Source of the DNA: an uncultured Pelagibacteraceae bacterium
GTDB taxonomy: Bacteria; Pseudomonadota; Alphaproteobacteria; Pelagibacterales; Pelagibacteraceae
DNA length: 48,180 nucleotides
Assembly (NCBI GenBank): GCA_902634325.1
Contig: CACPJP010000005.1
Span: 1 to 48,180 of the forward strand
Direction: 5' to 3'
Below the pieces are notes generated by a model, which saw only the letters and a list, made by a program, of their open reading frames with translations, made no database searches and was not told the DNA's origin. This document shows positions 218 through 12,532 of this stretch, piece by piece. The first letter of the stretch is position 1; each line of letters opens with the position of its first letter. A program made the position numbers and the translations under genes.

Positions 218-1159
218 ATGAATTGGATCAGAAACTTTCTAAAACCAAAAATTAAATCTTTGTTCAGAAAAAAATCCTCGATGAAAGGTGCACCAGAACT
301 TTGGTCTACTTGTGAGTGTAAGCAACTTATTTATCGAGAAGATCTTTTTAAAAATCTTTCGGTTTGCCCTAATTGTGGTAGCCATCATAAAATTGATGCC
401 CGTTCTAGATTTTCTATTTTTTTTGACCATTCTCAATTTGAAATTTTGCCTACGCCTCTTTCTAGATTAGATGATCCTCTTAATTTTCAGGCTAAAAAAA
501 AATATTCAGATCAACTAAAAGATGCTAGAAGAAAAACAAATCAATCTGACTCGATTTTAGTGGCCTACGGTAAATTAAATGGAATGGAAGTAACTTGTGC
601 TGCCATGTCATTTGACTTTATTGGTGGGTCACTTTCACAAAATTCTGGGGAGGCATTCATAGCTGGAATTAGTAGAGCTATCGAATTTAAAACACCCTTT
701 GTAGTATTCACGGCTTCGGGAGGAGCTAGGATGCAAGAAAATCTTATGAGCTTGGTTCAAATGTCAAGGACAGTACTTGCTGTAAACGAACTTAAAAAAG
801 CTAATCTGCCCTATTTCGTGGTAATGACAAATCCTACAGCAGGAGGCGTGACGGCCTCATTTGCTGGTCTTGGCGATATAGCTATAGCAGAGCCCGGCGC
901 GACGGTGGCATTTGCTGGCGCGAGAGTTATAAAAGATACTGTAAAAGAAGAGCTACCACCGAATTTCCAACTCAGTTCTTGGATTCTTGAACACGGAGGG
1001 TTGGACATGGTTGTAGAAAGAAAATATTTGAGAGGAACGATCTCTACATTATTACAAATTCTATTGAAGAAAAAAGAAAGTCAGGTTATATCAGAAACTG
1101 AAACTGACGATGTCGAAAGCCAAATCAATCCAAAAACTTCTAAAAGTCAATCAGCATAA
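218..1159 (+). CDS. accD: Acetyl-CoA carboxylase carboxyltransferase subunit beta
   Basis: AccD pairs with AccA to transfer the carboxyl group from carboxybiotin to acetyl-CoA, making malonyl-CoA for fatty acid synthesis. The 313-aa length is normal. The N-terminus holds the zinc ribbon and the rest is the crotonase-like carboxyltransferase fold, with the conserved FTASGGARMQE segment near residues 165-175 and a glycine-rich NPTAGGVTASFA stretch near 206-217. The ribbon reads C32-E-C34 and C50-P-N-C53, so the first knuckle is CxC rather than the usual CxxC. The ATG lies 4 bp after trpA. The 3' end overlaps folC by 50 bp, indicating one transcription unit. Confidence 0.95.
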   Translation: MNWIRNFLKPKIKSLFRKKSSMKGAPELWSTCECKQLIYREDLFKNLSVCPNCGSHHKIDARSRFSIFFDHSQFEILPTPLSRLDDPLNFQAKKKYSDQLKDARRKTNQSDSILVAYGKLNGMEVTCAAMSFDFIGGSLSQNSGEAFIAGISRAIEFKTPFVVFTASGGARMQENLMSLVQMSRTVLAVNELKKANLPYFVVMTNPTAGGVTASFAGLGDIAIAEPGATVAFAGARVIKDTVKEELPPNFQLSSWILEHGGLDMVVERKYLRGTISTLLQILLKKKESQVISETETDDVESQINPKTSKSQSA

Positions 1160-2366
1160 AAAAATTTTACTTGGATTATCCCGAACCAAGAAAGCACTTC
1201 ATCATATTAACTGGAATCAAAAAACAAAATCAAAAATAGTAACTATCGGAGGCACATCTGCTAAGTTTACTATTATAAATATTTTTAAAAAAATACTTAT
1301 TAAAAACAAAAATTCTTTTGCGGCAACTTATTCTCCTCACATCAAATCGATCGCAGAGCGTATGGAGGTTAATTCAAAATTTATTAGTCTAAATCAATTA
1401 AAAAAAATTCTTAATAAAATTTATAAAATACCGGTGCGGTTGACAGAATTTGAAATGCTTTGTGTCGCTTTTGCTGAGTACATAAAGAATAAAAAGATTG
1501 AATACACATTAGGAGAATTTGGTCTTTTCGGAAGAAAAGATGCGATTCGAGCACTGTTTCCGACTCCAGATATCCATGTCATAAGTCCAATCTCGTTTGA
1601 TCATTTGCATTGGTTAAAAAATAAGAAAAGAAACCTTAAGACCTTAAAAGAAATTGTTTACGAAAAAACTTCTTTTTTAAAGGCAAAAAGAATCTATATA
1701 GCAAAACAGGATTCGGATTCCTTAAAATTTATTAAATATTATTTAAAAAATAAAAAATGTTTTTATTATGGAAGAGATTTTTGGTTGAAGAAAAAAAAAG
1801 GAAAGTATTTTTATCAAGATAGAAAACAAAGCTTTATTATAAATTCTAACCTTTTAGGAGACTTTATGTATGAAAATGCTGTGTTAGCCATAAAAATTGC
1901 AATTGATGAAGGTATTTCGCCATCAATTATCAAGAAGTCTCTAAAAAACATAACAATGCCTGGTCGAATGCAGGAAATAAAATCTGGAAGATTAAGAAAA
2001 GGTTTGCCTAAATCTACTTTGATTTTTGCTGATGGGGGGCACAATTCATTAAGTTCAAAATCTGTATGTACTGCTTTGTCGAGTAAATATAAAAATAAGG
2101 ATCTTTATGCTATTATTTCAATGATATCATCTAAAGATCCCTCTTCGTTTTTAAAACCATTTAAAAGTTTTAAAAAAATATTTTTTGTGAATATGAAACA
2201 AAGTAATATCTATCCAAAAGAATCTTTAAATAAGATTTCAAAAAAGTTAAATATTCCTAGCGCTGTTTCTAAAGATTGTTATGAGGCCATCAAAACTGTT
2301 AGTGAGAAGAAAAATGCAATTTTTCTTATCACGGGATCTTTTTATTATTTACAGGAAATAATTTGA
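1110..2366 (+). CDS. folC: FolC-like dihydrofolate/folylpolyglutamate synthase, divergent P-loop
   Basis: By position (after accD, convergent with trxA) and architecture this is FolC, a Mur-ligase-fold enzyme that adds glutamate to dihydropteroate and folates. Supporting blocks are VTIGGTSAKFT (canonical VAGTNGKGST), YSPHIKSIAERM (canonical TSPHL...ER), EFGLFGRKDA (canonical EVGLGGRLDATN), SFDHLHWL and the C-terminal ADGGHN (canonical DGAHNP). The P-loop has lost both inner glycines (A51 and F53 replace G) but keeps K52. The region is very Lys/Ile rich. The start was chosen because IQKLLKVNQHKK aligns with the usual FolC N-terminus, even though it overlaps accD by 50 bp. It could be a diverged functional FolC or a decaying copy; an intact 418-aa frame argues for function. 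Confidence 0.8.
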   Translation: MSKAKSIQKLLKVNQHKKILLGLSRTKKALHHINWNQKTKSKIVTIGGTSAKFTIINIFKKILIKNKNSFAATYSPHIKSIAERMEVNSKFISLNQLKKILNKIYKIPVRLTEFEMLCVAFAEYIKNKKIEYTLGEFGLFGRKDAIRALFPTPDIHVISPISFDHLHWLKNKKRNLKTLKEIVYEKTSFLKAKRIYIAKQDSDSLKFIKYYLKNKKCFYYGRDFWLKKKKGKYFYQDRKQSFIINSNLLGDFMYENAVLAIKIAIDEGISPSIIKKSLKNITMPGRMQEIKSGRLRKGLPKSTLIFADGGHNSLSSKSVCTALSSKYKNKDLYAIISMISSKDPSSFLKPFKSFKKIFFVNMKQSNIYPKESLNKISKKLNIPSAVSKDCYEAIKTVSEKKNAIFLITGSFYYLQEII

Positions 2367-2374
2367 AATATTAT

Positions 2375-2689
2375 TTAAAGGTGTTTTTTTATTACGCTCG
2401 AAATTTTAGAATGTTCTTGAAAACCAACAATAGTTTCAACATGTTTTCCATCTTTATAAAGATATAGGGTTGGAATTGATCTGATACCCTCGGCGGTTGG
2501 AATATTAGGCTGTGAATCCAAATCGTGCTTGAGAATTTTACATTCTTTTATTTCGTCAGAAATACTTTCAAGAACAGGTGCTAAGGCCTTACAAGGTGAG
2601 CACCATGACGCCCAGAAATCTACCAGAACTAATTTATTTTCGCTTATTAATTTTTTAAACGTTTCATCTGTTGAAGTTATTGTAGCCAT
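2375..2689 (-). CDS. trxA: Thioredoxin
   Basis: A 104-aa cytoplasmic thioredoxin, the dithiol reductant for ribonucleotide reductase, Msr enzymes and others. VDFWASWCSPCK contains the redox pair C30/C33, and IRSIPTLYLYKDG carries the cis-proline that closes the active site. The pair is CSPC rather than the standard CGPC, a variant seen in some thioredoxins that may shift redox potential. It converges with folC (8 bp apart), the normal alphaproteobacterial arrangement. In many relatives addA and addB lie directly upstream of trxA; here a DNA-processing island starts instead. A promoter places the transcript start close to the ATG, so this mRNA may be leaderless. Confidence 0.96.
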   Translation of the reverse strand: MATITSTDETFKKLISENKLVLVDFWASWCSPCKALAPVLESISDEIKECKILKHDLDSQPNIPTAEGIRSIPTLYLYKDGKHVETIVGFQEHSKISSVIKKHL

Positions 2690-2801: not shown

Positions 2802-3458
2802 ATGAAGTGGAAGAAAAAATTTCAATATCCAGAATCGACCAAAACATTACAAAAAAGCTTTAAATCAAAGATTCCTTCGGTTTCTTTAATTCTGAAAGAG
2901 ACAATGCCAGAAGAAAAAAAAATCGCTCTTAAAAATTGGATAGAACGAGTAGGAAAGACAGAAGCCGATAAAATTAAGATTGATGCTTCTAAAAGAGGAG
3001 ATTTAATGCACGGTTATATTGAAAAATTTCTTAAAAAAGAAAACTTAAAAACTCAAGAAGGAACAGACAAAGCCTATGAGATGGCTAAAGTTATTATAAA
3101 AAACGGTTTAGAGAACAATCTGGAGGAAATTTGGAAAACGGAGGCTGTTCTATATTTTCCAGATCGCTACCTAGGGATCACTGATTTAGTTGGAATTATG
3201 AATTCAAAAACCACAATCATTGATTACAAGCAAAGTAATAATCCCAAACAAGAGAAGTATTGTGACGATTATTTTCTACAATTAGCAGCCTATATTTTGG
3301 CACACGATAAGGTTTACAATACAAAAATTTCTCAAGGTATCATCCTCTTGGCAACGGAAAGTTTCATGTTTCAAAGATTTGTTTTGGACGGGGAAAAATT
3401 AGAAAAATATAAAAACCTGTTTTTGGAAAGGATTGATCAATATTATAAAAAATTATAG
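2802..3458 (+). CDS. PD-(D/E)XK exonuclease, MGME1/phage type
   Basis: This 218-aa protein has the layout of the RecB-like PD-(D/E)XK exonucleases found in MGME1 and in marine tailed phages. PSVSLIL near residues 25-31 resembles their N-terminal PSVTTIL motif. RGDLMH (65-70) matches the conserved RGxxxH. The catalytic core is E114, D128 in GITDLVG, D141/K143 in IIDYKQS, and Q160 in LQLAAY. Such enzymes degrade DNA from free ends. It opens the DNA-processing block and converges with rmuC, overlapping its stop by 6 bp. It sits where addA would be expected in many alphaproteobacteria. The fold is well supported; the biological substrate is unknown. Phage ancestry is inference from the motif resemblance. 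Confidence 0.8.
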   Translation: MKWKKKFQYPESTKTLQKSFKSKIPSVSLILKETMPEEKKIALKNWIERVGKTEADKIKIDASKRGDLMHGYIEKFLKKENLKTQEGTDKAYEMAKVIIKNGLENNLEEIWKTEAVLYFPDRYLGITDLVGIMNSKTTIIDYKQSNNPKQEKYCDDYFLQLAAYILAHDKVYNTKISQGIILLATESFMFQRFVLDGEKLEKYKNLFLERIDQYYKKL

Positions 3459-4592
3459 CTTAACTACTTTTTTAACTTCTGGGTCTTCTAATTCATGAAC
3501 TTCGGCTTCCTCGTCTAATATTTCAGTAATATCTTTTCCTGTAACACCGTGATCATGAAGTTTTTTGACTTTGTTCTCAAAGCTTTGAGGACTTCCAAAA
3601 AGATTATTAATTAAATTTTTCAAGCTCTTCTGGTGAGTATTATAACTTGTAATGGCACTTTTAACATTCGATTTAATCCCAGCATATTTATCTAGAATTT
3701 CTTCTGCAAGTTTAGTGATTTTTCCAACTTCCTTAACCTGTTTGATCTGGTTTTTAGTTTCTTGAATATTGCTTAAAATGGCAAGCATCGTTAAGGGTCC
3801 TGCTAACAAAATTCTTTTCTTAATACAAAAATCTAAAATTTCTTCATCGTTCTCGAGTACTGATAAATAAACCTGATCGAAAGGCATAAAACAAATTACA
3901 TATTTAAATGCTTCTTTCTTAATACTGTGAATTTTTGTGTACTCTTTTTTTGACAAGTCTTGAATGTGTTTTCTAACAGAAGAAATATGAGCTTTTAGAT
4001 GTTTGGCTCTCATATTTGGGTCTTTTTCGTTACAATAGCTTTTGAAGTTGGTTAGGCTAACTTTACAATCTGCCACAACTTTTTGTTCATTAGGAAGTGA
4101 AATGATGTAATCTGGAATTTGTATTTTTATATCACCTTCTGGATCCGAGCTTTTTTCTCCTTTACTCTTTTGAAAACCATTTTTTCCTTCTGGGAAACCA
4201 GATTTCAAAAGTAGATCGTTCAATTTTTTTTCGTTATAATTTCCTTGAAATTTGAAATCCCCTATTAGTTTGTCATGAAAATCCTTGTAATCGTTAACAA
4301 CTTCTTTGTAATTTGAAATAGATTCTTCGCTTATTTTTCGATATGCGTTTACATCTCCGATTAATTTCAGCTGATCTTTTTTATCCGTTTCTAAAGAATC
4401 AATTCGACCTTTAGCAGTGTTTAATTGTTCGGACAAAGATCTCACTTCTGCATCGGATTTTATAAAATCTGGGTGATTTTTAATTTCTTCAATCTCATTG
4501 TCTTTTTTTTTAAATTTTAAAAAATAAAGAACTAGTGCAACAATAATTATTGCCTGTATGACTGATAATAAAATTAAATAACTATTTTCCAT
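3453..4592 (-). CDS. rmuC: RmuC family DNA recombination protein
   Basis: RmuC proteins are inner-membrane-anchored putative nucleases linked to DNA recombination and rearrangement control. The 379-aa protein begins with one hydrophobic helix (about residues 5-25), followed by a coiled-coil region (about 30-110). It then has the PD-(D/E)XK-type domain with D161 in IPDYII and D175-C-K177 in VADCKVSL (canonical DSKVSL). The C-terminal blocks IKKEAFKYVICFMPFD and ILLAGPLTMLAIL are typical. It is the last gene of the leftward operon, 8 bp after the 198-aa gene. Housekeeping RmuC exists in many proteobacteria, so it could be a resident gene captured by the operon rather than a dedicated component. 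Confidence 0.88.
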   Translation of the reverse strand: MENSYLILLSVIQAIIIVALVLYFLKFKKKDNEIEEIKNHPDFIKSDAEVRSLSEQLNTAKGRIDSLETDKKDQLKLIGDVNAYRKISEESISNYKEVVNDYKDFHDKLIGDFKFQGNYNEKKLNDLLLKSGFPEGKNGFQKSKGEKSSDPEGDIKIQIPDYIISLPNEQKVVADCKVSLTNFKSYCNEKDPNMRAKHLKAHISSVRKHIQDLSKKEYTKIHSIKKEAFKYVICFMPFDQVYLSVLENDEEILDFCIKKRILLAGPLTMLAILSNIQETKNQIKQVKEVGKITKLAEEILDKYAGIKSNVKSAITSYNTHQKSLKNLINNLFGSPQSFENKVKKLHDHGVTGKDITEILDEEAEVHELEDPEVKKVVKL

Positions 4593-4600
4593 TTTTTAAT

Positions 4601-5197
4601 TTAATTTTTTTGAAAAACCCCTTTTTTTAATTTTTCATTTACTTCAGATTTAGATTTTTCTTTATCTAAAACTGATCGTACTAATTTTCTATTGGTATAA
4701 ACCCCTGTATTTTCTGCAACTTTTTCAGCTATTGAAGTTTTGGTTTCTTCTTTTTTGTCTGCTTGATTAAATACTTTAATAATTTCTCTTTTCTTTTCCT
4801 TAAGAGCTTTTCGTCCGGGAAGAGAGTTATTATTATTTCTTAAATTCTCAATAATTTCCTTAACTTTTTCAGAACTAGGTTTGTAAAAATAATTTGGGTC
4901 GCATCCAAAACTTCCAACCCTACCAAAAGTTTTCATCTTTATACCATTGTTTTTTGCAAACCTTACCAGATTTCTGGTTTCTTCATCTATAGCCGCTCCT
5001 TTTTCTTTTAAAAAACTTATAAGCTGATCAAAATTAAGAAGGCCGCTTTCTCTAATTTCTTTTTCAATTAATTTTTTTCTATGTGCCGGCCAAAGTTTTC
5101 TTAATTCTCTATATGTATAATTTTTGCCAACCACATTTAATTCTTTTTCCAAAGACTTTTTGTTTAATGTTTGAGGGTTTTCTGATATTTCCTTCAT
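4601..5197 (-). CDS. Hypothetical protein, 198 aa, Lys/Glu-rich
   Basis: I do not recognise this family. It is charged, soluble and mostly helical in appearance, with no signal peptide or membrane segment. One distinctive conserved-looking stretch, FGRVGSFGCDPNYFYKP, lies around residues 92-108, between an N-terminal half with YRELRKLWPAHRKKL and a very charged C-terminal half. It starts 3 bp after the stop of the metallopeptidase fusion gene and ends 8 bp before rmuC, so it is almost certainly co-transcribed and probably made in proportion. A role as substrate, adaptor or nucleic-acid-binding partner is possible but unproven. Confidence 0.7.
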   Translation of the reverse strand: MKEISENPQTLNKKSLEKELNVVGKNYTYRELRKLWPAHRKKLIEKEIRESGLLNFDQLISFLKEKGAAIDEETRNLVRFAKNNGIKMKTFGRVGSFGCDPNYFYKPSSEKVKEIIENLRNNNNSLPGRKALKEKKREIIKVFNQADKKEETKTSIAEKVAENTGVYTNRKLVRSVLDKEKSKSEVNEKLKKGVFQKN

Positions 5198-5200
5198 ATT

Positions 5201-6805
5201 TTAATGTATTCTATGTCTATTTTCCCATTCTTTTGAAAATCTACCAACCTTTGAATTTTTATCAAGTGCTTGTTCCAGCATCCAAGTCAGAAGGTCTGAG
5301 AAATTTCTCTCTCCGTCTCTACTTCCAGTAGCATGACCTAATTCATGCATAAACGTTGATAACATTTTTCCAAAAGAAGATTTGAAGAGGCTCTCGTGTA
5401 AATAAACGAGCTTATTATTGTAGGTGCCTGAATCATCCTTCAATTGTCCTAGCAAATCTTTGCATTTGATGCTTTTGAACTTAACTTCGTAAAGATTTTC
5501 GTCTTCGCTAGTATCAAATAGTTGTGAAAAGCTCGGAGAAATTTCCTTAATAGCTTTAAAACAAAAATCTACAGATGCTCTTTGTTTTTTGGACAAATCT
5601 TTCGTTTTTGTATTTTTAATTCTCTTTTCAGAGTTTGCTTTATTTCTTATAAAAGCGTCTAGTGAGCTTTCCACGCCAAATGCAGAAAAATAGCTAGGAA
5701 GCATAATTTTGTTCTTCTTTTTTTTCTTATCTCTTTTTAGAATATAACCCTGTGTTGATGTACTGTACCAATCGGACCAGGATATTGAAGATGAATACCT
5801 GAACTTAGACTCAGAGATGTATTCTTTTCCAAAAATTTTCTGCATTTCTGGGTCATCCTTTAAGCGAGAGTAGCTGTGAGATGCAATTGAAGAAAGAAGA
5901 GGATGACCCTTTTTCCAAACAGCTTTTGATTTACGAAGTATATAATAAATAGCATCATTACCTTCCATGGAATAAAAACCAGATCTTGAAAAAATACTAA
6001 AAAATGTACTTTGAACCTTATCTGAAAAGGCGTTTCTGTCTCGATCACTCTTGGTTCTTTTTTCCAAAGCTGCATAAGGTTTTTTTATGTTTATTACAAC
6101 GGGTATGTCTTTTATGTCTACACGTTTTAGACCCCTATAGAAGCCAAAACCATTCTTGGTTTTTGATTCATACACTTCAATCTCATTATATTCATGAAGT
6201 TTTTTTCCTAATAATTTGTTTTGGTTGTGAAAAAAATTTAACATTCCAAATTCAAAAGCTTTTTTTAGTTTTTTTGAAATGGTTTTTACTATAAAAAAGC
6301 AGCCTGGTTGCTTGTTTATTTTAAAGTAGTGGTAAATTAGTGGTCTTAATTTTGTTTCCGGATCTTCATTGCCAATTCCAATAATTAGTGCATCCTCACC
6401 AGAGATGTTGACTGGGTTTTGGATTCCCCTTTTGTAAAGGTCTGAATAGCATTTTTTTGCTCCCTCACCCATTTTCCCAATTAAATCATTCTCTGATTCT
6501 TGTTTTGTTGAACCAATATAATATAATTTTTTTAGAGAAAAAAACGTTGGAGAAAATACGGTTATAAGATCATTCTTAATTTCAATTTTAATTTTATCAA
6601 TTTTTACTTTTGCTTCAACGCATGAGTCTCGGAAATTTTGCAAGATATCTCTAGAAATTTGTTCTTCTGTCCAAGGTTCACTTCCCCAAGAATTTGTAAC
6701 TGCTGACTCCATGGATTTTAAGTATGTTGCTTTTGAAATTCCATCAATCTCTAAGAGCAGATCTTTGTATTGCTCGATAGTTTTTTGATTTATAAGTTCG
6801 CTCAT
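5201..6805 (-). CDS. GHKL-ATPase-like domain fused to a HELGH zinc metallopeptidase
   Basis: A 534-aa two-part protein. The N-terminal 150 residues resemble the GHKL (Hsp90/MutL/MORC) fold. ISRDILQNFRD (50-60) fits the ATP-binding N-box with N57, and LIGKMGEGAKKC (108-119) fits the glycine-rich lid box of paraMORC-type proteins. The usual DxGxG box is not evident (VFSPTFF occupies that place), so nucleotide binding is uncertain. The middle is unrecognised. The C-terminus carries HELGHATG with H487, E488, H491 and a downstream D497/F502 pattern resembling minigluzincin-type peptidases. No signal peptide, so it is cytoplasmic. It sits between 180-aa and 198-aa unknown genes with 3-8 bp spacing. 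The metallopeptidase call is firm; the GHKL call is moderate; the substrate is unknown. Confidence 0.75.
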   Translation of the reverse strand: MSELINQKTIEQYKDLLLEIDGISKATYLKSMESAVTNSWGSEPWTEEQISRDILQNFRDSCVEAKVKIDKIKIEIKNDLITVFSPTFFSLKKLYYIGSTKQESENDLIGKMGEGAKKCYSDLYKRGIQNPVNISGEDALIIGIGNEDPETKLRPLIYHYFKINKQPGCFFIVKTISKKLKKAFEFGMLNFFHNQNKLLGKKLHEYNEIEVYESKTKNGFGFYRGLKRVDIKDIPVVINIKKPYAALEKRTKSDRDRNAFSDKVQSTFFSIFSRSGFYSMEGNDAIYYILRKSKAVWKKGHPLLSSIASHSYSRLKDDPEMQKIFGKEYISESKFRYSSSISWSDWYSTSTQGYILKRDKKKKKNKIMLPSYFSAFGVESSLDAFIRNKANSEKRIKNTKTKDLSKKQRASVDFCFKAIKEISPSFSQLFDTSEDENLYEVKFKSIKCKDLLGQLKDDSGTYNNKLVYLHESLFKSSFGKMLSTFMHELGHATGSRDGERNFSDLLTWMLEQALDKNSKVGRFSKEWENRHRIH

Positions 6806-6813
6806 TTTATCTC

Positions 6814-7356
6814 CTAATGTATTGTTTTTTCTTTTTTATCTTTTTCTTCTTTGGTAATAGTTTTATTGTCCTCTCTCCATTCAGGGCAGTTCTCAGCTAA
6901 AAATTCTTTATGATTTGAGATGATTTGTTTCTCGACTTCTGCTACAGCAGTTCGATAACTAAAATAAGGTAGGCTGTAGATCATTCGTTGCTGAATGTAG
7001 AATAACAAATAATACCAAGGATAAAATCCGTAGCATCCTGCCGAATCAGCTGTTTTCTCAAAATTTTTTGCGATTTGCTTTGCTATACGTTCCACTCTTT
7101 TCTTCTCATCATAGTCATTAGCTAATTTTCTTGTTTTTAGAGGTATAACATTGCTTGGTAAGATGCCGTTTCCAACGTGAGTGTTTTCTGTGCTGTTAAA
7201 GTTAAAAAGGCTATAATTAATAGGTCCACCCTGTTCTTCCTTTTCTTCTGCTTTTGTTGTTGAAGCAGCTTGCCTGGCTAATCGCTCATTAAGAGACAGC
7301 TTTTTTTTCTTGAATAGCCTATTCATCAACATCTTTATCCCAATTTTTATATCCAT
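6814..7356 (-). CDS. Hypothetical protein, 180 aa
   Basis: I do not recognise this protein. The N-terminal third is basic and low in complexity (LFKKKKLSLNERLARQAA). The middle contains GNGILPSNVIPLKTRK. An aromatic segment with GCYGFYPWYYLLFYIQQ near residues 108-124 could be a buried helix or a weak membrane-associated helix. The tail is Lys/Glu-rich. It ends 8 bp before the metallopeptidase fusion and its start overlaps a 48-aa reading frame by 10 bp, typical of translational coupling. It may be a partner of the downstream fusion, but the sequence gives no function. Confidence 0.65.
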   Translation of the reverse strand: MDIKIGIKMLMNRLFKKKKLSLNERLARQAASTTKAEEKEEQGGPINYSLFNFNSTENTHVGNGILPSNVIPLKTRKLANDYDEKKRVERIAKQIAKNFEKTADSAGCYGFYPWYYLLFYIQQRMIYSLPYFSYRTAVAEVEKQIISNHKEFLAENCPEWREDNKTITKEEKDKKEKTIH

Positions 7357-7493
7357 AATTTTTTTAATCTGGACTCTACCGGATTAAATATAGGAATTTC
7401 GTTTTTGTGCAATTCCTTGTACTTAACCCTTAGAGTTTCAAGTTGTTTTTCAACTCCGATAAGAGCTTTGTTAATTATTTTTTCTACTCTCAT
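7347..7493 (-). CDS. Possible 48-aa protein in the leftward operon
   Basis: A short frame beginning ATG AGA GTA GAA encodes 48 residues, ending KKLWI. It fills the gap between the ribbon-helix-helix gene (23-bp overlap at its start) and the 180-aa gene (10-bp overlap at its end), which is how translationally coupled genes are packed elsewhere in this window. The product is charged, helical, with KQLETLRVKYKELHK resembling a short coiled coil. There is no separate Shine-Dalgarno sequence. It is too short to assign and might be non-coding. Confidence 0.45.
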   Translation of the reverse strand: MRVEKIINKALIGVEKQLETLRVKYKELHKNEIPIFNPVESRLKKLWI

Positions 7494-7710
7494 TTATGAG
7501 TTGTGTTTTAAAATGTTGATATGCTGGTGAACCTACTAAAGGTTTTACCCACTTCGGATCTTCTATAATGCTTTGAAGGACATTTGAAGCCAGCTCAACA
7601 GTTTTGCTAATGCTTAAATCTACATCAGTAACTATTTTGCTTTGTTTCTTAAGTTGCTCATAAGCTTCTTTACTTAATGAAACATTCTTATATTTAGTTA
7701 TGTCGGTCAT
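7471..7710 (-). CDS. Small ribbon-helix-helix-like DNA-binding protein
   Basis: 79 aa. The N-terminal 45 residues, a short strand YKNVSLSKEAYEQLKKQS followed by two predicted helices ending SISKTVELASNVLQSII, have the pattern of RHH/CopG-type antitoxins and plasmid repressors. The remaining tail is unassigned. It is the first gene of the leftward operon, preceded by a strong consensus promoter and AAGGAGG (7724-7730, 13 nt before the ATG). First-gene position suggests autoregulation through the palindrome over the -35 box. It could alternatively be an antitoxin, but no toxin family is recognisable next to it. Confidence 0.6.
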   Translation of the reverse strand: MTDITKYKNVSLSKEAYEQLKKQSKIVTDVDLSISKTVELASNVLQSIIEDPKWVKPLVGSPAYQHFKTQLINESRKNN

Positions 7711-7841: not shown

Positions 7842-9278
7842 ATGTCAGATAAAAAAGGATTTATTACCGATTTAGAGCTAAAAGAGCTGATTCAAGGGAT
7901 AGACGATAAATATATAAATCAGCTACAAAATTGTAGGTCTGCAGAGCATGGCCGTCTGGTAAGGGATAGGATACTAGCCCAAATAGACGGCAAAAGCCAA
8001 AATAGGATTCTTCTAGAAGAAATATTAAAGGCAACAAAAGTTACTAAACGCCAATGTTCAGAACTGCTATGGGATCACCACCATAGTTTAGATGGTTATT
8101 TGTATCGTTTTAATGGAAAAGTATTTCCTAGTAGTTTTGCATATTTTTTCCTAAATTCAATACATTATTACACTTCTTTAAAAAGCAAATCGAGACCGCA
8201 CAATATAAAATTTTATAAAACACTTTCCTATGCCAGAGAGATTGATGCTGAAAAAAAATTAATTATACCAGCTTTAGAGTACCATATGATTATGTTGTCT
8301 AGGTCATATATTGATTTTTCATTAGACGATTATGATCCGGGATATATTAATGCGGTTGTGCCTGGAGCAGAAGAACACATTACAGATCCTGTACGAGCAG
8401 AAGATCCGAAAAATGAAAAAATTGGTGGTGCAGCAGAAGAATTAACAAATAAAACAGAAAAAGAAAAACTTTCACAATCTCAAAAAATGATTGATTCCAT
8501 AAGAAAATTTAAGCCTGCTTTAGAATTTTTTAGAAATAAATATATGAAAAAATTTATACCTCCTGATCAAATTGCCGATATTGAAGGTAACGATAAAGAA
8601 ATCGGCACTTTTTTTACAAAAAAATTCCTTAGAAAAGAATTTGATATTGGAGATGGAGATAAAGTTATATTGCATAAAGTTCGAGATAACCTAATGGCAC
8701 CAGCTCTTAATAAAAATGATTTTGTATTAATTCAAGAATATCCTACAGTATTTGAGCCTCATTTAGATACATTCAAGGATGGATTATATGCAATTAAAAG
8801 AGGTGTTGATGATTTCAATGAGGAAATCCAAATAAGAAAAATTGCTTTTGGAAGTACCTGTTTAGTCTATTCTGATTTTGAAAAAATTCAATCCGCTGAA
8901 AAAATAGAATATCGTGATTTAATTAAAGGAAAAAAAATATGGGATAAAAGAGATGATGATATTTATATGATTAAAGAGATTGATCAGTACATTGCTAAAG
9001 GTAAAATTTCAGATATTGATTATATTATTAATAAATACAGAGGCTCTGTATATCTACAAAAAAAATTAAAACATGATCCTGTTATAAAAAAATTGTTTGG
9101 TGATGATGGATTAGATGTAGGCGCAACGTTTGAGTTTAAGCTTTATGGCAAAGTGCTTTGGAGTATGTCTAATCATATAAAGAGCCAAGTGGATATTCAT
9201 TCTCTAGAACCAAAAAAATCTATATTTGAAAACTTAGAAGATATTTATGAACAAAAAGAAATAAAAAAAATAGCATGA
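7842..9278 (+). CDS. Large protein with a catalytically dead S24/LexA-like domain
   Basis: 478 aa. Residues about 273-445 read like an S24 (LexA/CI) C-terminal domain: VRDNLMAPALNKNDFVLI (canonical VxGDSMxPxLxxGDxVLI), then DGLYAIKRG, IQIRKIAFG (canonical VKRI) and a closing FKLYGKVLWS (canonical IlGrVvw). The nucleophile serine is L284 and the general-base lysine aligns with R332, so self-cleavage should be impossible. The N-terminal 180 residues may hold a helix-turn-helix (LLEEILKATKVTKRQCSELL) but no family is clear. A linker near 180-215 is charged. First gene of the rightward operon, overlapping the next by ATGA. A repressor or effector sensor is the natural reading; this is inference. 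Confidence 0.6.
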   Translation: MSDKKGFITDLELKELIQGIDDKYINQLQNCRSAEHGRLVRDRILAQIDGKSQNRILLEEILKATKVTKRQCSELLWDHHHSLDGYLYRFNGKVFPSSFAYFFLNSIHYYTSLKSKSRPHNIKFYKTLSYAREIDAEKKLIIPALEYHMIMLSRSYIDFSLDDYDPGYINAVVPGAEEHITDPVRAEDPKNEKIGGAAEELTNKTEKEKLSQSQKMIDSIRKFKPALEFFRNKYMKKFIPPDQIADIEGNDKEIGTFFTKKFLRKEFDIGDGDKVILHKVRDNLMAPALNKNDFVLIQEYPTVFEPHLDTFKDGLYAIKRGVDDFNEEIQIRKIAFGSTCLVYSDFEKIQSAEKIEYRDLIKGKKIWDKRDDDIYMIKEIDQYIAKGKISDIDYIINKYRGSVYLQKKLKHDPVIKKLFGDDGLDVGATFEFKLYGKVLWSMSNHIKSQVDIHSLEPKKSIFENLEDIYEQKEIKKIA

Positions 9279-10744
9279 CAAATTTAAATAAACTGTACTT
9301 TGATATTGAAGGAACGACGGGATCTCATCTGACTTGTGATGTCCTATCTCTTTCGTTTATTAATACTTCCCATAACGATAAAGAGCTGGAAACGAAGACT
9401 TATTACGTTCGCCCTAGAAAATCGAGAATTTATCAGGTCGACGCTTTGATGGTCAACAAATTCAACCCTTTTGATGCTGATAAACACGAACACTCTTCTT
9501 TCTCATTTACAAAAGTAATTAACAAAAAATTTACCGAGATAGGTAATAAGGGCTGTTACTTTGTAACCTGGAGTGGGCATTCATATGATTATATGGCAAT
9601 CTCGCATCATCTTTATTGCAATTTATTTACTTGGCCTTGGATTTTTTCTACTGGACAAGCTCGACAACTTGATGCGTTACCCATAGCACACAATTTAGAT
9701 TATTATGAGCCAAATAAAATTGCGACCGAACTTAACAACAAAAATAATAAAGTTTACAAACTCGAATCGCTTTGTCGCATGAACGGATTCCCAATTGGTC
9801 CTGAGGCTCACTCATCTTTGGCTGATACGAAGGGATTAAAAAAAATGACCGAACATCTACAAGAAAAATTTCCTAATTTATTCAAAGAATGTTTAAAAAA
9901 TACTGATAAACAACAAATATTACCTAGTATTAAAAACAAAGATGTTTTTATATTTCCAGAGACTTTTTTTGCTAAAACTAGAAATTTTGCCGGATCCTTT
10001 GTAACAGAACATCAACATTACAGAGGTTATTACATTGTGGCCGACCTGAAACATGATTGGGAGCTTATTAATAAGAAAAAGGGTCAAGAATTCTCGGATA
10101 TAATTTTGAAAGCGCCGAAAAAAATCAGACAAATTAAAAGCAACAGAAATCCACTAATTCGAGACACGAGCGTTTTAAACACTTTAAGTGATCAATACTC
10201 TGAAGAGTTGAAAAAAATTGGTTTACCAGAGCTAGAAAAGCGAGCTAAATTTATTCAAAAAAACAGAGAGGAACTTGCTGAGAAAATTAATCTTGCGATA
10301 GAAGATGACTTGGATAAGAAAAATCAAGATCAATCCGAAAAAGAGATCGAAGAGCAAATTTTTGATATCAAACCCTCAAGAGATGAGAAAGATATGATGC
10401 AAAAATTTGTAGAAGAAAAAACTTCGATGGAAGAACAAAAAAAAATTGTAAAAGCGTTTAAACAACCTGGTCTTAAATATTTAGGTGAAAACATACTGCT
10501 TGATGAATATGGACAAGAAGCGTTTGATAAAAAGGATTATACTAAAATTAGAAAACGAATTGCAAAAAGGTTGTTATCAACAAATACAGAAAAATTTCCC
10601 ACAATTCCAGAACAGTTTGCGCGTGTGGATTCATTAAGAGTAGAAATGGAAGAAGAGGGAGCAGACAAAAAGAAGGTCGATCAAGTTTCAACCATCAATA
10701 AACACTTAGAAGAAAAATCAAAGGAACATGAAAAATACCTATGA
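9275..10744 (+). CDS. sbcB: Exodeoxyribonuclease I, SbcB family
   Basis: 489 aa, close to the 475 aa of E. coli exonuclease I, which digests single-stranded DNA 3' to 5'. All five catalytic residues of the DnaQ-like (DEDDh) domain are visible: D10 and E12 in LYFDIEGT, D105 in GHSYDYMAI, and H179 and D184 in EAHSSLADTKGL. The match continues through the family-specific C-terminal part: the counterparts of ExoI GMFGAWRG (ETFFAKTRNFAGSF), NKCPVL (NRNPLIRD), SDADRAAM (SRDEKDMM) and the final LDYAEQQRW segment (FPTIPEQFARVDSLR). It overlaps both neighbours by 4 bp. SbcB is mainly gammaproteobacterial, so lateral transfer is likely. Confidence 0.85.
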   Translation: MTNLNKLYFDIEGTTGSHLTCDVLSLSFINTSHNDKELETKTYYVRPRKSRIYQVDALMVNKFNPFDADKHEHSSFSFTKVINKKFTEIGNKGCYFVTWSGHSYDYMAISHHLYCNLFTWPWIFSTGQARQLDALPIAHNLDYYEPNKIATELNNKNNKVYKLESLCRMNGFPIGPEAHSSLADTKGLKKMTEHLQEKFPNLFKECLKNTDKQQILPSIKNKDVFIFPETFFAKTRNFAGSFVTEHQHYRGYYIVADLKHDWELINKKKGQEFSDIILKAPKKIRQIKSNRNPLIRDTSVLNTLSDQYSEELKKIGLPELEKRAKFIQKNREELAEKINLAIEDDLDKKNQDQSEKEIEEQIFDIKPSRDEKDMMQKFVEEKTSMEEQKKIVKAFKQPGLKYLGENILLDEYGQEAFDKKDYTKIRKRIAKRLLSTNTEKFPTIPEQFARVDSLRVEMEEEGADKKKVDQVSTINKHLEEKSKEHEKYL

Positions 10745-11025
10745 TGTATAACTTTAAAAAAAGCCTGGAAGACAGGCTCGAAAATCGGAAATTTTGGTTA
10801 AACTATTATTCCCATTGTTTAAGACATGGTTCGATAAGTGAAATTACAAAAAAAGAATTTTACAAAGATAGAATACTTTTAAAGATCTTTTTTAATTTTT
10901 ATTATCTCCCCTACAATATTTACAAATTCCTTTCTAAAATAATAATGATTCACAGATACGAAAAGATAAAAAAAGAAATTGAAATTTTGAAAAAAACAAT
11001 CGAATATGAATCAAAAAGTATTTGA
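10741..11025 (+). CDS. Hypothetical protein, 94 aa
   Basis: A basic, helical protein of unknown family. It starts in an ATGA overlap with the exonuclease stop and its end overlaps the helicase gene by 20 bp, so it is translated in the middle of the operon. Residues about 52-70 (FFNFYYLPYNIYKFLSK) are aromatic and could form an amphipathic helix, but I see no certain membrane segment. The C-terminal 25 residues look like a coiled coil (KIKKEIEILKKTIEYE). It may be a partner of the exonuclease or helicase, but nothing in the sequence shows this. Confidence 0.6.
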   Translation: MMYNFKKSLEDRLENRKFWLNYYSHCLRHGSISEITKKEFYKDRILLKIFFNFYYLPYNIYKFLSKIIMIHRYEKIKKEIEILKKTIEYESKSI

Positions 11026-12532
11026 TACAGGAACTACCCTTCCTGAAAAATTTGTACTTACCAATGAGTTTAAGAAAATTTTTAAACTTGTCGACAACAA
11101 AAATTCTAATATATTTATTACAGGAAAGGCTGGGACAGGAAAATCAACTTTCTTGGAATACTTCAGGCAGAATACAAAAAAAAATCATGCAATCTTAGCT
11201 CCGACTGGTATTACAGCTATTAAAGCCAAAGGTAAAACCATACATTCTTTTTTTAAATTTCCGCCAAGATTTATCGTAAAAGAAGATGTTAAATTGTTAA
11301 AAGATAAAAAATTGCTTCAAAGATTAGAAACTTTATTAATTGATGAAAGTTCAATGATAAGAGCTGATATTTTTGATGGCATTGACTATTCGCTCAAAAT
11401 AAACAGAAAAAATAACAGACCCTTTGGTGGTGTTCAAATTATTCTACTTGGCGACTTATTTCAGTTGCCTCCTGTAGTTTCGAGTAATGACAAAGAAGTG
11501 ATTGATAAATTTTATCCTAAAGGTGAATATTTTTTTAATGCCAAATCTTTTCCTGAAGGTAATTTTTTGGTTAAAGAACTGACCAAAATTTTTAGACAAT
11601 CAGATGCTGATTTTATAAATTTACTTAATAAGTTTAGGCTTGCAAAAATTGAGTCGTCTGACTTAAAAATTATAAACAAAAGAAAAGTTGCAGAAGATTT
11701 TAGGGCTCCCAAAGGAGCGATTATTTTATCTCCAAGAAATAAAAAGGTAGATGAGATTAACAATACAAAACTTGATGAGATAAAGTCGAAAGTTTTCTCT
11801 TATACAGCAATGGTTAAAGACATTTTTAAAGAAAGTGAATATCCCGTAAAAAAAGTTTTAAATTTAAAGGTAGGTGCTCAAGTGATGATAACAAAAAATG
11901 ATGTTAGTGAACAAAAGAAATATGTTAATGGAACATTGGCAATTATTGAGCAACTAGCAGACGATGAGGTAAAACTAAAAATTAAAGATAAGATAATTAA
12001 TTTACCAAAATCTAGGTGGGAAAAAATAGATTATAGATTAAATGGAAACAGTATAAATCCAAAAGTTATAGGTACATTTGTTCAATATCCATTAAAATTA
12101 GCCTGGGCAGCCACAATTCACAAATGCCAGGGCCAAACGTTTGATGAGGTAGCAATTGATTTAGACGAGGGTGCATTTACACATGGGCAAACCTATGTGG
12201 CCTTGAGTAGGGCTAAAACAATGAATGGGATTCATTTGTTAAAAGAAATTAAATTTTCAGATTTGTTTTTTGATAAGAATGTATTTAATTTTTTAGGACA
12301 TGAGTTGCAGAAAAAATATGTAAAAGAACTAAAAACAACTAAAACAATTGAAGAAAAAAATAGACCAAATACAACCAATGAAATTCAATCAAATAATTGG
12401 TCTGATAAAAGTGATAGAATGCTCATGGCTCTTTTTAAAAGGAAAGTTCCAGAAAAAGCGTTATCAAAAATTTTTAAAAGAAAAATTACCGAGATTAGAG
12501 AGAGAACACTTTATTTAATGGAAAAAAAATGA
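11006..12532 (+). CDS. Pif1-like SF1B DNA helicase
   Basis: 508 aa. Walker A is GKAGTGKST (40-48), followed by APTGITAI (motif Ia), LLIDESSMI (Walker B, D113/E114), LLGDLFQLPPV (motif III, 148-157) and ELTKIFRQS (motif IV). Late motifs are AATIHKCQGQTFDEV and YVALSRAK (motifs V-VI). This is the Pif1/RecD2 branch, 5'-3' helicases that unwind forks, R-loops and G-quadruplexes. After the helicase core a short basic tail (residues about 460-508, LMALFKRKVPEKALSKIF) may be an extra DNA-binding helix pair. The start lies inside the 94-aa gene and the stop overlaps the DUF3047 gene by ATGA. Confidence 0.9.
   Translation: MNQKVFDTGTTLPEKFVLTNEFKKIFKLVDNKNSNIFITGKAGTGKSTFLEYFRQNTKKNHAILAPTGITAIKAKGKTIHSFFKFPPRFIVKEDVKLLKDKKLLQRLETLLIDESSMIRADIFDGIDYSLKINRKNNRPFGGVQIILLGDLFQLPPVVSSNDKEVIDKFYPKGEYFFNAKSFPEGNFLVKELTKIFRQSDADFINLLNKFRLAKIESSDLKIINKRKVAEDFRAPKGAIILSPRNKKVDEINNTKLDEIKSKVFSYTAMVKDIFKESEYPVKKVLNLKVGAQVMITKNDVSEQKKYVNGTLAIIEQLADDEVKLKIKDKIINLPKSRWEKIDYRLNGNSINPKVIGTFVQYPLKLAWAATIHKCQGQTFDEVAIDLDEGAFTHGQTYVALSRAKTMNGIHLLKEIKFSDLFFDKNVFNFLGHELQKKYVKELKTTKTIEEKNRPNTTNEIQSNNWSDKSDRMLMALFKRKVPEKALSKIFKRKITEIRERTLYLMEKK

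What the first reader, a model, noticed from the sequence alone, without database searches (positions are those of the whole stretch)
5201..6805. GHKL-like module fused to a HELGH zinc peptidase
The N-terminal third fits the N-box and GxxGEGxK box of GHKL ATPases (Hsp90/MutL/paraMORC), though the DxGxG box is absent; the C-terminus has a complete HEXXH motif (H487, E488, H491). A nucleotide-gated or conformationally switched protease is suggested. GHKL modules joined to effectors recur in prokaryotic conflict systems, but I know of no characterised protein with this pair.
Basis: partly seen in the sequence, partly recalled or inferred. Interest (0 to 1): 0.78.

Follow-up and report, generated by a model that had tools for sequence, protein, structure and literature searches.

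The report
Predicted ATPase fused to zinc protease
A rare gene in ocean SAR11 bacteria joins an Hsp90-type ATPase module to a zinc-protease-like domain, the same combination turns up in some large bacterial viruses, and it sits in a gene cluster for DNA-cutting enzymes, so it may be an ATP-controlled protease used in the conflict between bacteria and viruses.

Summary
The gene is on the minus strand (6805 to 5201, 534 aa). N-box, GxxGEG box, HExxH and the absence of DxGxG are as described; the three motifs are invariant in 10 of 10 full-length SAR11 homologues. The N-terminus is a GHKL-S5 (Hsp90/MutL-type) module: homologues match phage family phrog_6077, whose members are annotated in some phages as RIIA or histidine kinase-like ATPase. 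The C-terminus is homologous to a zincin-like domain joined to the same module in 5 of 80 related viral loci in one scan and 15 of 41 in a targeted one. Each half matches separately, far above controls. An AlphaFold model of a phage homologue (pLDDT 90) matches Hsp90, TRAP1 and topoisomerases over residues 5-331; the zincin half got no fold match. The target itself did not model well. The gene is rare (10 of 397 SAR11 genomes), under strong purifying selection, and upstream of rmuC on the same strand in 11 of 11 loci, in an rmuC-exoI-trxA-folC hotspot. Most likely it is an ATP-gated zinc protease for phage conflict or DNA processing, a protease counterpart of GHKL-nuclease Shedu. ATPase, protease and defence activity are untested.

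The parts
5201..6805 (-). Target gene, 534 aa: GHKL-S5 module plus C-terminal zincin-like domain
   Evidence: homologues; dN/dS
5966..6805 (-). N-terminal GHKL-S5 module, residues 1-280 (phrog_6077-like)
   Evidence: hhalign to phage proteins: E 5.3e-11 over residues 45-276; N-half alone score 65.8 (aligned over residues 38-128) against a control maximum of 17.4; PHROG_6077 hits of three homologues, not of the target itself; fold of a phage homologue
6626..6652 (-). N-box, residues 52-60 (RDILQNFRD)
6455..6478 (-). GxxGEG box, residues 110-117
6035..6046 (-). DRDR motif of the S5-like part, residues 254-257, shared with phage homologues
5201..5614 (-). C-terminal zincin-like domain, residues 398-534
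   Evidence: hhalign of this part alone: E 5.6e-10, score 59.2 against a control maximum of 14.9; sub-threshold Pfam DUF4344 putative metallopeptidase, E 0.013
5333..5347 (-). HExxH, residues 487-491
   Evidence: Invariant in 10 of 10
5294..5317 (-). Residues 497-504 (DGERNFSD); D497 or D504 is a candidate third metal ligand, where 14 of 15 phage fusions have DGxxxH
   Evidence: choice of ligand is inference
4601..5197 (-). F8, 198 aa partner of unknown function
   Evidence: 3-nt gap to target; strong hits in 7 of 10 target genomes and 5 of 387 others, Fisher P 3e-10
3453..4592 (-). RmuC-family protein with an N-terminal hydrophobic segment (by eye)
   Evidence: PF02646 E 1.4e-48; PADLOC RTasRmuC E 7.8e-37
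6814..7356 (-). 180 aa protein (F12), nearest gene upstream of target
   Evidence: 8-nt gap; family also found without target
7471..7710 (-). 79 aa protein, possible Arc-like repressor
   Evidence: PHROG_3180 E 0.021, weak
7842..9278 (+). 478 aa conserved protein (F9), function unknown
   Evidence: only a weak CI-like PHROG hit, E 0.039
9275..10744 (+). ExoI/SbcB-like DEDDh exonuclease
   Evidence: NCBIfam exodeoxyribonuclease I model E 7.5e-16, below its cut-off; PADLOC RTasSbcB E 1.2e-24; D10, E12, D105, D184 invariant in 9 rows
11006..12532 (+). Pif1/Dda-like helicase
   Evidence: PF05970 E 5.7e-28; phrog_325 E 1.2e-73
2802..3458 (+). PD-(D/E)XK exonuclease
   Evidence: PF12705 E 1.8e-6; phrog_298 E 3.4e-36
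218..2689 (.). accD, folC, trxA (named by recall from sequence): fixed flank of the hotspot
   Evidence: Same neighbours in other SAR11 loci

Best explanation
The protein is an ATP-controlled zinc protease. SHOWN by sequence and by the fold of a phage homologue: an Hsp90/MutL-type GHKL domain, an S5-like domain carrying DRDR, a middle region, and a C-terminal HExxH domain. INFERRED: two copies dimerise through the GHKL part when nucleotide binds, the S5 arginines sense the phosphate, and closure of the clamp around a DNA or protein substrate exposes or aligns the zinc site, which then cuts a bound protein. INFERRED from gene context: it works with its neighbours, a probably membrane-anchored RmuC, the small F8 protein and the ExoI-like nuclease, in handling invading or damaged DNA, most likely against phages. 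It would be a protease counterpart of GHKL-nuclease Shedu (VcSduA).
For: Motifs invariant in 10 of 10 homologues. Full-length profile match to 15 phage GHKL-HExxH proteins, E 4.5e-11 over residues 38-513; each half matches alone far above controls. A phage homologue models at pLDDT 90 and matches the Hsp90 N-domain (Z 11.3, 133 residues, 2.8 A) and TRAP1 N plus middle domains (Z 10.8, 286 residues, 7.4 A). Gaps to neighbours of 8, 3 and 8 nt. RmuC downstream on the same strand, within 0-2 genes, in 11 of 11 target loci. In the RmuC tree the window and G011 join six target-bearing g3 loci (99/97), while in the folC tree they join two loci without the target (100/100), which suggests that target and RmuC are inherited together. 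Flanks of some loci hold restriction or MORC-like genes. Weak PADLOC matches: candidate PDC-S05 to the C-terminal part of one SAR11 homologue (E 0.0025) and TmtA to the GHKL part of a phage homologue (E 1e-5). VcSduA: a GHKL fused to a nuclease, ATPase and nuclease mutants both lose defence (PMC12137116, section 12). Shield pairs an RmuC nuclease with a metallopeptidase-like partner (PMC10270631, section 11).
Against: The DxGxG Asp is absent from target and relatives, so ATP binding may be altered or lost. The N-box Glu is Asp in 9 of 10 SAR11 copies. No assay of any activity. The target's own model was poor (pLDDT 43). The zincin half got no independent fold match, and the third metal ligand is unsettled. 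RmuC and the ExoI-like gene are core SAR11 genes: RmuC is in 357 of 397 genomes, far more than the target, so nearness to them is no proof of a joint defence system. The target itself matches no PADLOC model up to E 1. The folC tree also clusters the six g3 target loci, so only the window and G011 carry the tree argument.
Confidence: 0.5

Rival explanations
1. DNA-repair protease, not immunity. The GHKL clamp loads on DNA and the zinc domain removes proteins stuck or crosslinked to DNA, in the manner of SPRTN or Wss1, so that the ExoI-like enzyme, RmuC and helicase can finish the job.
For: The neighbours that have a named family are DNA-processing enzymes, and the locus is core in SAR11. SprT-like Pfam is a sub-threshold match for one SAR11 homologue (E 0.062) and one phage homologue (E 0.072). 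The phage HExxH...DGxxxH pattern resembles SprT (recalled).
Against: Rare, patchy presence (10 of 397) is unlike a repair gene. SprT matches are below cut-off. No DNA-binding evidence.
Confidence: 0.2
2. Regulator of RmuC. The protease trims or degrades its RmuC neighbour, as ShdB is thought to do to ShdA in Shield, and the GHKL module senses the trigger.
For: RmuC is the constant downstream partner in 11 of 11 loci. Shared inheritance suggested by trees. ShdB interacts with ShdA and lowers its level (PMC10270631).
Against: ShdB is M15-like by that paper's own model, not a GHKL fusion. RmuC exists without the target in most SAR11 genomes.
Confidence: 0.15
3. Captured phage gene. An RIIA-like phage protein with a zincin tail was domesticated, and it interferes with other phages or with host defences, without needing ATP.
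For: phrog_6077 homology, Foldseek matches to many RIIA proteins, the same fusion in phages, missing DxGxG.
Against: 13-18% identity to the phage fusions in one alignment means the split is old; direction of transfer not tested. SAR11 copies are at a fixed locus under strong purifying selection.
Confidence: 0.15

Closest known systems
phrog_6077 phage proteins (annotated histidine kinase-like ATPase or RIIA lysis inhibitor in some phages)
   Same: N-terminal GHKL-S5 module, RExxQN in most, GKFGEG in most, (D/E)RDR, no DxGxG
   Different: 0 of the 6 aligned have HExxH; 75 of 80 viral relatives have none. The target has a zincin-like C-terminus and is chromosomal
Unannotated GHKL-HExxH proteins of uncultured phages (15 of 41 loci, contigs 31-398 kb)
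   Same: Same two halves in the same order; HExxH followed by DGxxxH in 14 of 15
   Different: Target is longer (534 against 459 aa in L167; DRDR to HExxH 233 against 197 residues) and has FSD where the phages have H; 13-18% identity in A9
VcSduA, Shedu type I-D / paraMORC3
   Same: GHKL module in front of a hydrolase effector on a bacterial chromosome (PMC12137116)
   Different: Effector is a PD-(D/E)XK nuclease; VcSduA keeps motifs I-IV
Shield (ShdA RmuC + ShdB metallopeptidase-like)
   Same: RmuC-family protein encoded with a metallopeptidase-like protein (PMC10270631)
   Different: No GHKL is mentioned in that paper (0 occurrences); ShdB is M15-like; Shield reported only from Pseudomonas
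Hsp90/TRAP1, topoisomerase VI-B, MutL
   Same: Bergerat fold and S5 domain in the phage homologue's model
   Different: No protease domain and canonical DxGxG present (recalled)

Membership tests
GHKL ATPase superfamily | N-box with Asn and Asp | tested here: met
   N57 and D60 invariant in 10 of 10
GHKL ATPase superfamily | DxGxG adenine-binding box | tested here: not met
   Absent in 10 SAR11, 6 phage and 15 phage fusion rows. Fold and the other boxes are met, so I call it a divergent relative with an altered nucleotide site, not a canonical GHKL ATPase
GHKL ATPase superfamily | GxxGxG box | tested here: met
   G110, G113, E114, G115 invariant
GHKL ATPase superfamily | Bergerat fold | tested here: met
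   Met for the phage homologue L167, to which the target's N-half aligns; the target's own model was too poor to search
GHKL ATPase superfamily | ATP binding and hydrolysis | not testable with these tools
   Needs protein
Zincin metallopeptidases | HExxH | tested here: met
   Invariant in 10 of 10; in 15 of 41 viral loci
Zincin metallopeptidases | Third metal ligand after HExxH | tested here: inconclusive
   D497 and D504 invariant; 14 of 15 phage fusions have H at the F502 position
Zincin metallopeptidases | Zincin fold | tested here: inconclusive
   Order of helices and strands in the L167 model fits, but no library match covers it
SprT/SPRTN | Match to PF10263 above cut-off | tested here: not met
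   Best E 0.062 and 0.072, 13.4 bits against a cut-off of 25.6
RIIA (T4-like) | GHKL plus variable C-terminus, phage-encoded | tested here: inconclusive
   The phage homologue's model matches named RIIA proteins at TM 0.3-0.4 of the query, and phrog_6077 is matched, but the target is on a bacterial chromosome and T4 rIIA itself was not compared
Shedu type I-D | DUF4263 nuclease domain | tested here: not met
   No such Pfam or PADLOC match
Shield | ShdA RmuC with partner ShdB/C/D/E | tested here: inconclusive
   RmuC is present, but its PADLOC match is RTasRmuC and RmuC is core in SAR11; ShdB not compared
DRT (defence-associated reverse transcriptase) | Reverse transcriptase | tested here: inconclusive
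   RmuC and ExoI-like proteins match RTas models; no RVT_1 in the window's genome, but that genome is only 61% complete

The most novel reading that the evidence does not exclude
A new class of immune or counter-immune enzyme: an ATP-driven GHKL clamp that closes on DNA or on a phage complex and delivers a zinc protease, exchanged between large phages and SAR11, with an RmuC/ExoI nuclease set as its partner in one of the ocean's most abundant bacterial groups.
Probability: 0.3. Interest if true: 0.82.

Novelty: new variant of a known kind. Interest (0 to 1): 0.6.

Why it matters
GHKL modules that switch an attached effector are known with nucleases (Shedu type I-D, paraMORC3), but my paper searches (listings only, partly capped) showed no report of one with a protease. 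If the gating is real, Hsp90-like clamps can be wired directly to proteolysis. It would also give SAR11, where few defence systems are described (my recollection), a testable candidate, and give the uncharacterised phage family phrog_6077 a functional lead.

Tried and rejected
Single-sequence searches with the target found nothing in named phages or viral contigs, nor did A2 and two homologues in viral contigs or one homologue in plasmids. The phage link appeared only through the divergent homologue L026 (48 records, 15 shown). In plasmids a phage fusion finds 5 records, none covering 80% of it.

First idea, that RmuC marks a target-specific system, was wrong: RmuC is in 357 of 397 SAR11 genomes, one match in each genome listed, and at the trxA/folC locus in 12 of 13 target-free loci read (the 13 were chosen by me, not drawn at random). 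F8, F9, F10, F12 and the 1,120-aa helicase-nuclease also occur without the target.

AlphaFold of the target from three sequences was poor (pLDDT 43) and was not searched.

The class-level hit G572 is a separate zinc-peptidase-like membrane protein without GHKL motifs by eye. PDB sequence search gave two weak rows, one a metalloproteinase at the HExxH (E 0.4). A second phage GHKL-HExxH family (3 of 19 viral loci) is not a close relative: hhalign probability 3.9 against A2. Absence of a zincin row in the VIA list is not evidence of absence, as the GHKL part filled the list.

The phylum search with A10 gave 5 of 299: own genome, two 379-383-aa frames without HExxH, and two (G884, G1016) that my script's filter did not print and that I did not read. 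In the viral count, L179 and L207 were left out because my start choice gave a broken or short frame; L202 (HExxH, no DRDR) and L192 (HExxH at residue 176) were not counted.

Full report
WHERE IT IS. The window lies in a 727 kb, 61%-complete genome; homologues in the same genus and order are in records titled uncultured Pelagibacteraceae, so I take it as SAR11. The gene runs on the minus strand from 6805 to 5201 and encodes 534 aa. It is part of a tight run: 180-aa gene, target, 198-aa gene (F8), rmuC, with gaps of 8, 3 and 8 nt.

THE OBSERVATION. Ten full-length SAR11 sequences, the most distant at 39% identity, keep N57, D60, GxxGEG, a DRDR motif, HExxH, G494, D497, G498 and D504 without exception. 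DxGxG is missing in all ten. The N-box acid is Asp in nine and Glu in one. dN/dS is 0.03-0.09 in five comparisons of target copies, against 0.12 for folC between the window and G011, so the gene is in use.

WHAT THE N-TERMINUS IS. Pfam and PHROGs see nothing there in the target itself. The divergent homologue L026 led to phage proteins, some annotated histidine kinase-like ATPase or RIIA lysis inhibitor (48 records, best E about 1e-3 among the 15 shown). Three homologues match PHROG_6077 (E 2.6e-10, 1.3e-9, 4e-7). NCBIfam's sacsin ATP-binding-like domain is a sub-threshold match to two SAR11 homologues and two phage proteins, not to the target. Profile comparison with six phage proteins gives E 5.3e-11 over residues 45-276, including DRDR. 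Those phage proteins also lack DxGxG, so its loss is a family trait and not decay of this gene.

WHAT THE C-TERMINUS IS. Pfam's only hint in the target is DUF4344, a putative metallopeptidase, at E 0.013, below its cut-off; 5 of 10 homologues give it at E up to 1. A scan of viral contigs with the phage family found 183 relatives and kept 80, of which 5 carry HExxH behind the GHKL-S5 module. A second scan, made with those five, gave 41 loci, of which 15 carry it (contigs 31-398 kb; the five contigs are among them). These align with the target over residues 38-513, E 4.5e-11. Taken alone, the target's C-terminal part matches theirs with score 59.2 (E 5.6e-10); 22 unrelated pieces reached at most 14.9 and 6 column-shuffled versions at most 12.2. 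The N-terminal part alone scores 65.8, over residues 38-128, against at most 17.4 for 6 controls. The phage pattern is HExxH followed by DGxxxH in 14 of 15; the SAR11 pattern is HExxHxxGx(x)DGxRxFSD. The phage fusion L111 matches 110 named phage records, none over 80% of its length, and none of the 60 rows shown reaches its HExxH.

FOLD. With three sequences the target modelled poorly (pLDDT 43), though the order of helices and strands in residues 1-190 fits a Bergerat fold. The phage homologue L167, with 32 rows, modelled at pLDDT 90.2, pTM 0.77. Foldseek in the PDB returns Hsp90, a viral topoisomerase ATPase domain and topoisomerase VI-B at E below 1e-3, and MutL and GyrB slightly above. VIA-align gives Hsp90 N-domain Z 11.3 (133 residues, 2.8 A) and TRAP1 N plus middle Z 10.8 (286 residues, 7.4 A). 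Among viral models many named RIIA proteins appear at low TM-score. HExxH (417-421) lies at the end of one helix, H431 in the next, and three strands precede them, as in small zincins (recalled), but no library match covers this part. These statements are about the phage homologue; they carry to the target through.

DISTRIBUTION. A match at E 1e-3 is found in 10 of 397 genomes of the order and 3 of 101 relatives: 11 different genomes in all, the window's included. In 385 genomes of the class 2 match: the window's gene and a zinc-peptidase-like protein without GHKL. In 299 genomes of the phylum searched with the phage fusion profile 5 match: the window's gene (E 2.3e-5), two without HExxH, two not read.

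THE LOCUS. In all 11 target loci rmuC is downstream on the same strand within 0-2 genes. In 12 of 13 target-free loci that I chose and read, rmuC and an ExoI-like exonuclease sit beside trxA-folC-accD without the target, and RmuC is found in 357 of 397 genomes. So the target is an optional part of a core nuclease locus. F8 is tied to it: strong hits (over 170 bits) in 7 of 10 target genomes and 5 of 387 others, P 3e-10; 52 further F8 rows, all under 26 bits and in much longer frames, were not counted. The RmuC tree groups the window and G011 with six other target loci (99/97), while folC groups them with two target-free loci (100/100). The label needs 3 changes in the RmuC tree, against 8.2 on average in shuffles (0 of 500 as low), 4 against 8.2 (0 of 500) in the ExoI tree and 4 against 7.5 (7 of 500) in the folC tree. 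Against a simple story: L025, L026 and the long-branched L005 lie elsewhere in the RmuC tree, the folC tree also groups the six g3 target loci, and one target-free locus lies inside the ExoI group. Flanks of some loci hold restriction or conflict genes: an AspBHI-like endonuclease with an MZB protein and helicase in target-free L072, and a HATPase_c_3 (MORC-type, recalled) gene in target locus L024. PADLOC matches RmuC and the ExoI-like protein to reverse-transcriptase-associated models, but no reverse transcriptase was found in the incomplete genome. PADLOC gives no match to the target, a weak one of candidate PDC-S05 to the C-terminal part of homologue L025 (E 0.0025, residues 454-518) and one of TmtA to the GHKL part of L167 (E 1e-5).

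HOW IT MAY WORK. GHKL-S5 proteins dimerise on ATP and close a clamp over DNA or protein (established for Hsp90, MutL and topoisomerases; recalled). VcSduA shows that such a module can control a C-terminal effector: mutants of the ATPase and of the nuclease both lose defence (PMC12137116, section 12 read; other passages). I propose the same logic with a protease as effector. Shown: homology of both halves, fold of the first half in a relative, conservation, gene order. Inferred: ATP use, dimer, zinc, cleavage, substrate, defence. The missing adenine Asp is the strongest point against ordinary ATP use.

KNOWN OR NEW. [quoted passage not shown] it names no peptidase there in the passages I saw. 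The MORC paper (PMC2292703, passages) has no occurrence of peptidase or protease. Searches (9 of 9 papers listed; 10 of 32; 12 of 17; 12 of 90) showed no title or abstract start reporting a GHKL-zinc peptidase fusion; apart from passages of the papers named here I did not read those texts, and many subscription papers are not held. I therefore call it a new variant of GHKL-gated effectors. Its rarity, its presence in both SAR11 and large phages, and the nuclease context make it worth a test; lack of any activity data keeps the score moderate.

Noticed in passing
L167:8468-9985, L174:11114-12679, L189:3380-4861: A second, distantly related GHKL-HExxH protein lies near the first in 3 of 19 viral loci; it has a DDxPxGF-like motif and a relative in a 485 kb uncultured phage record without annotation, LR745208.1.
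   Followed up: partly
window 3453-4592 and 9275-10744: RmuC and the ExoI-like exonuclease match PADLOC's reverse-transcriptase-associated models RTasRmuC and RTasSbcB; RmuC is near-universal in SAR11 and the two lie together in the loci read.
   Followed up: partly
window 7842-9278: A 478-aa protein family (F9) beside the ExoI-like gene, in 8 of 11 target loci and one target-free locus, no clear family.
   Followed up: no
L072:12199-17872, L024:15889-17079, L071:10016-16136: The rmuC-exo locus of SAR11 looks like a hotspot: AspBHI-like endonuclease with MZB protein and helicase, HATPase_c_3 gene, and a methyltransferase-like gene (named by eye).
   Followed up: partly
L025:2176-3126, L026:11210-12187: In two loci a protein of one family, ARPP-1 (PF20208, E 2.3e-57 for the L025 copy), follows the target and precedes rmuC.
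   Followed up: no
G107:C1:1088345-1088806: A genome without the target carries an F8 copy with one internal TAA, possibly a relic of a lost module.
   Followed up: no
L019:3128-6502: A 1,124-aa protein with Cas4-like, RNase H and helicase parts recurs in five target loci and one without (L072).
   Followed up: no
L025:602-2179 and L167:6001-7380: Weak PADLOC matches to two candidate or known defence models, PDC-S05 (C-terminal part, E 0.0025) and TmtA (GHKL part, E 1e-5); what these systems are was not looked up.
   Followed up: no
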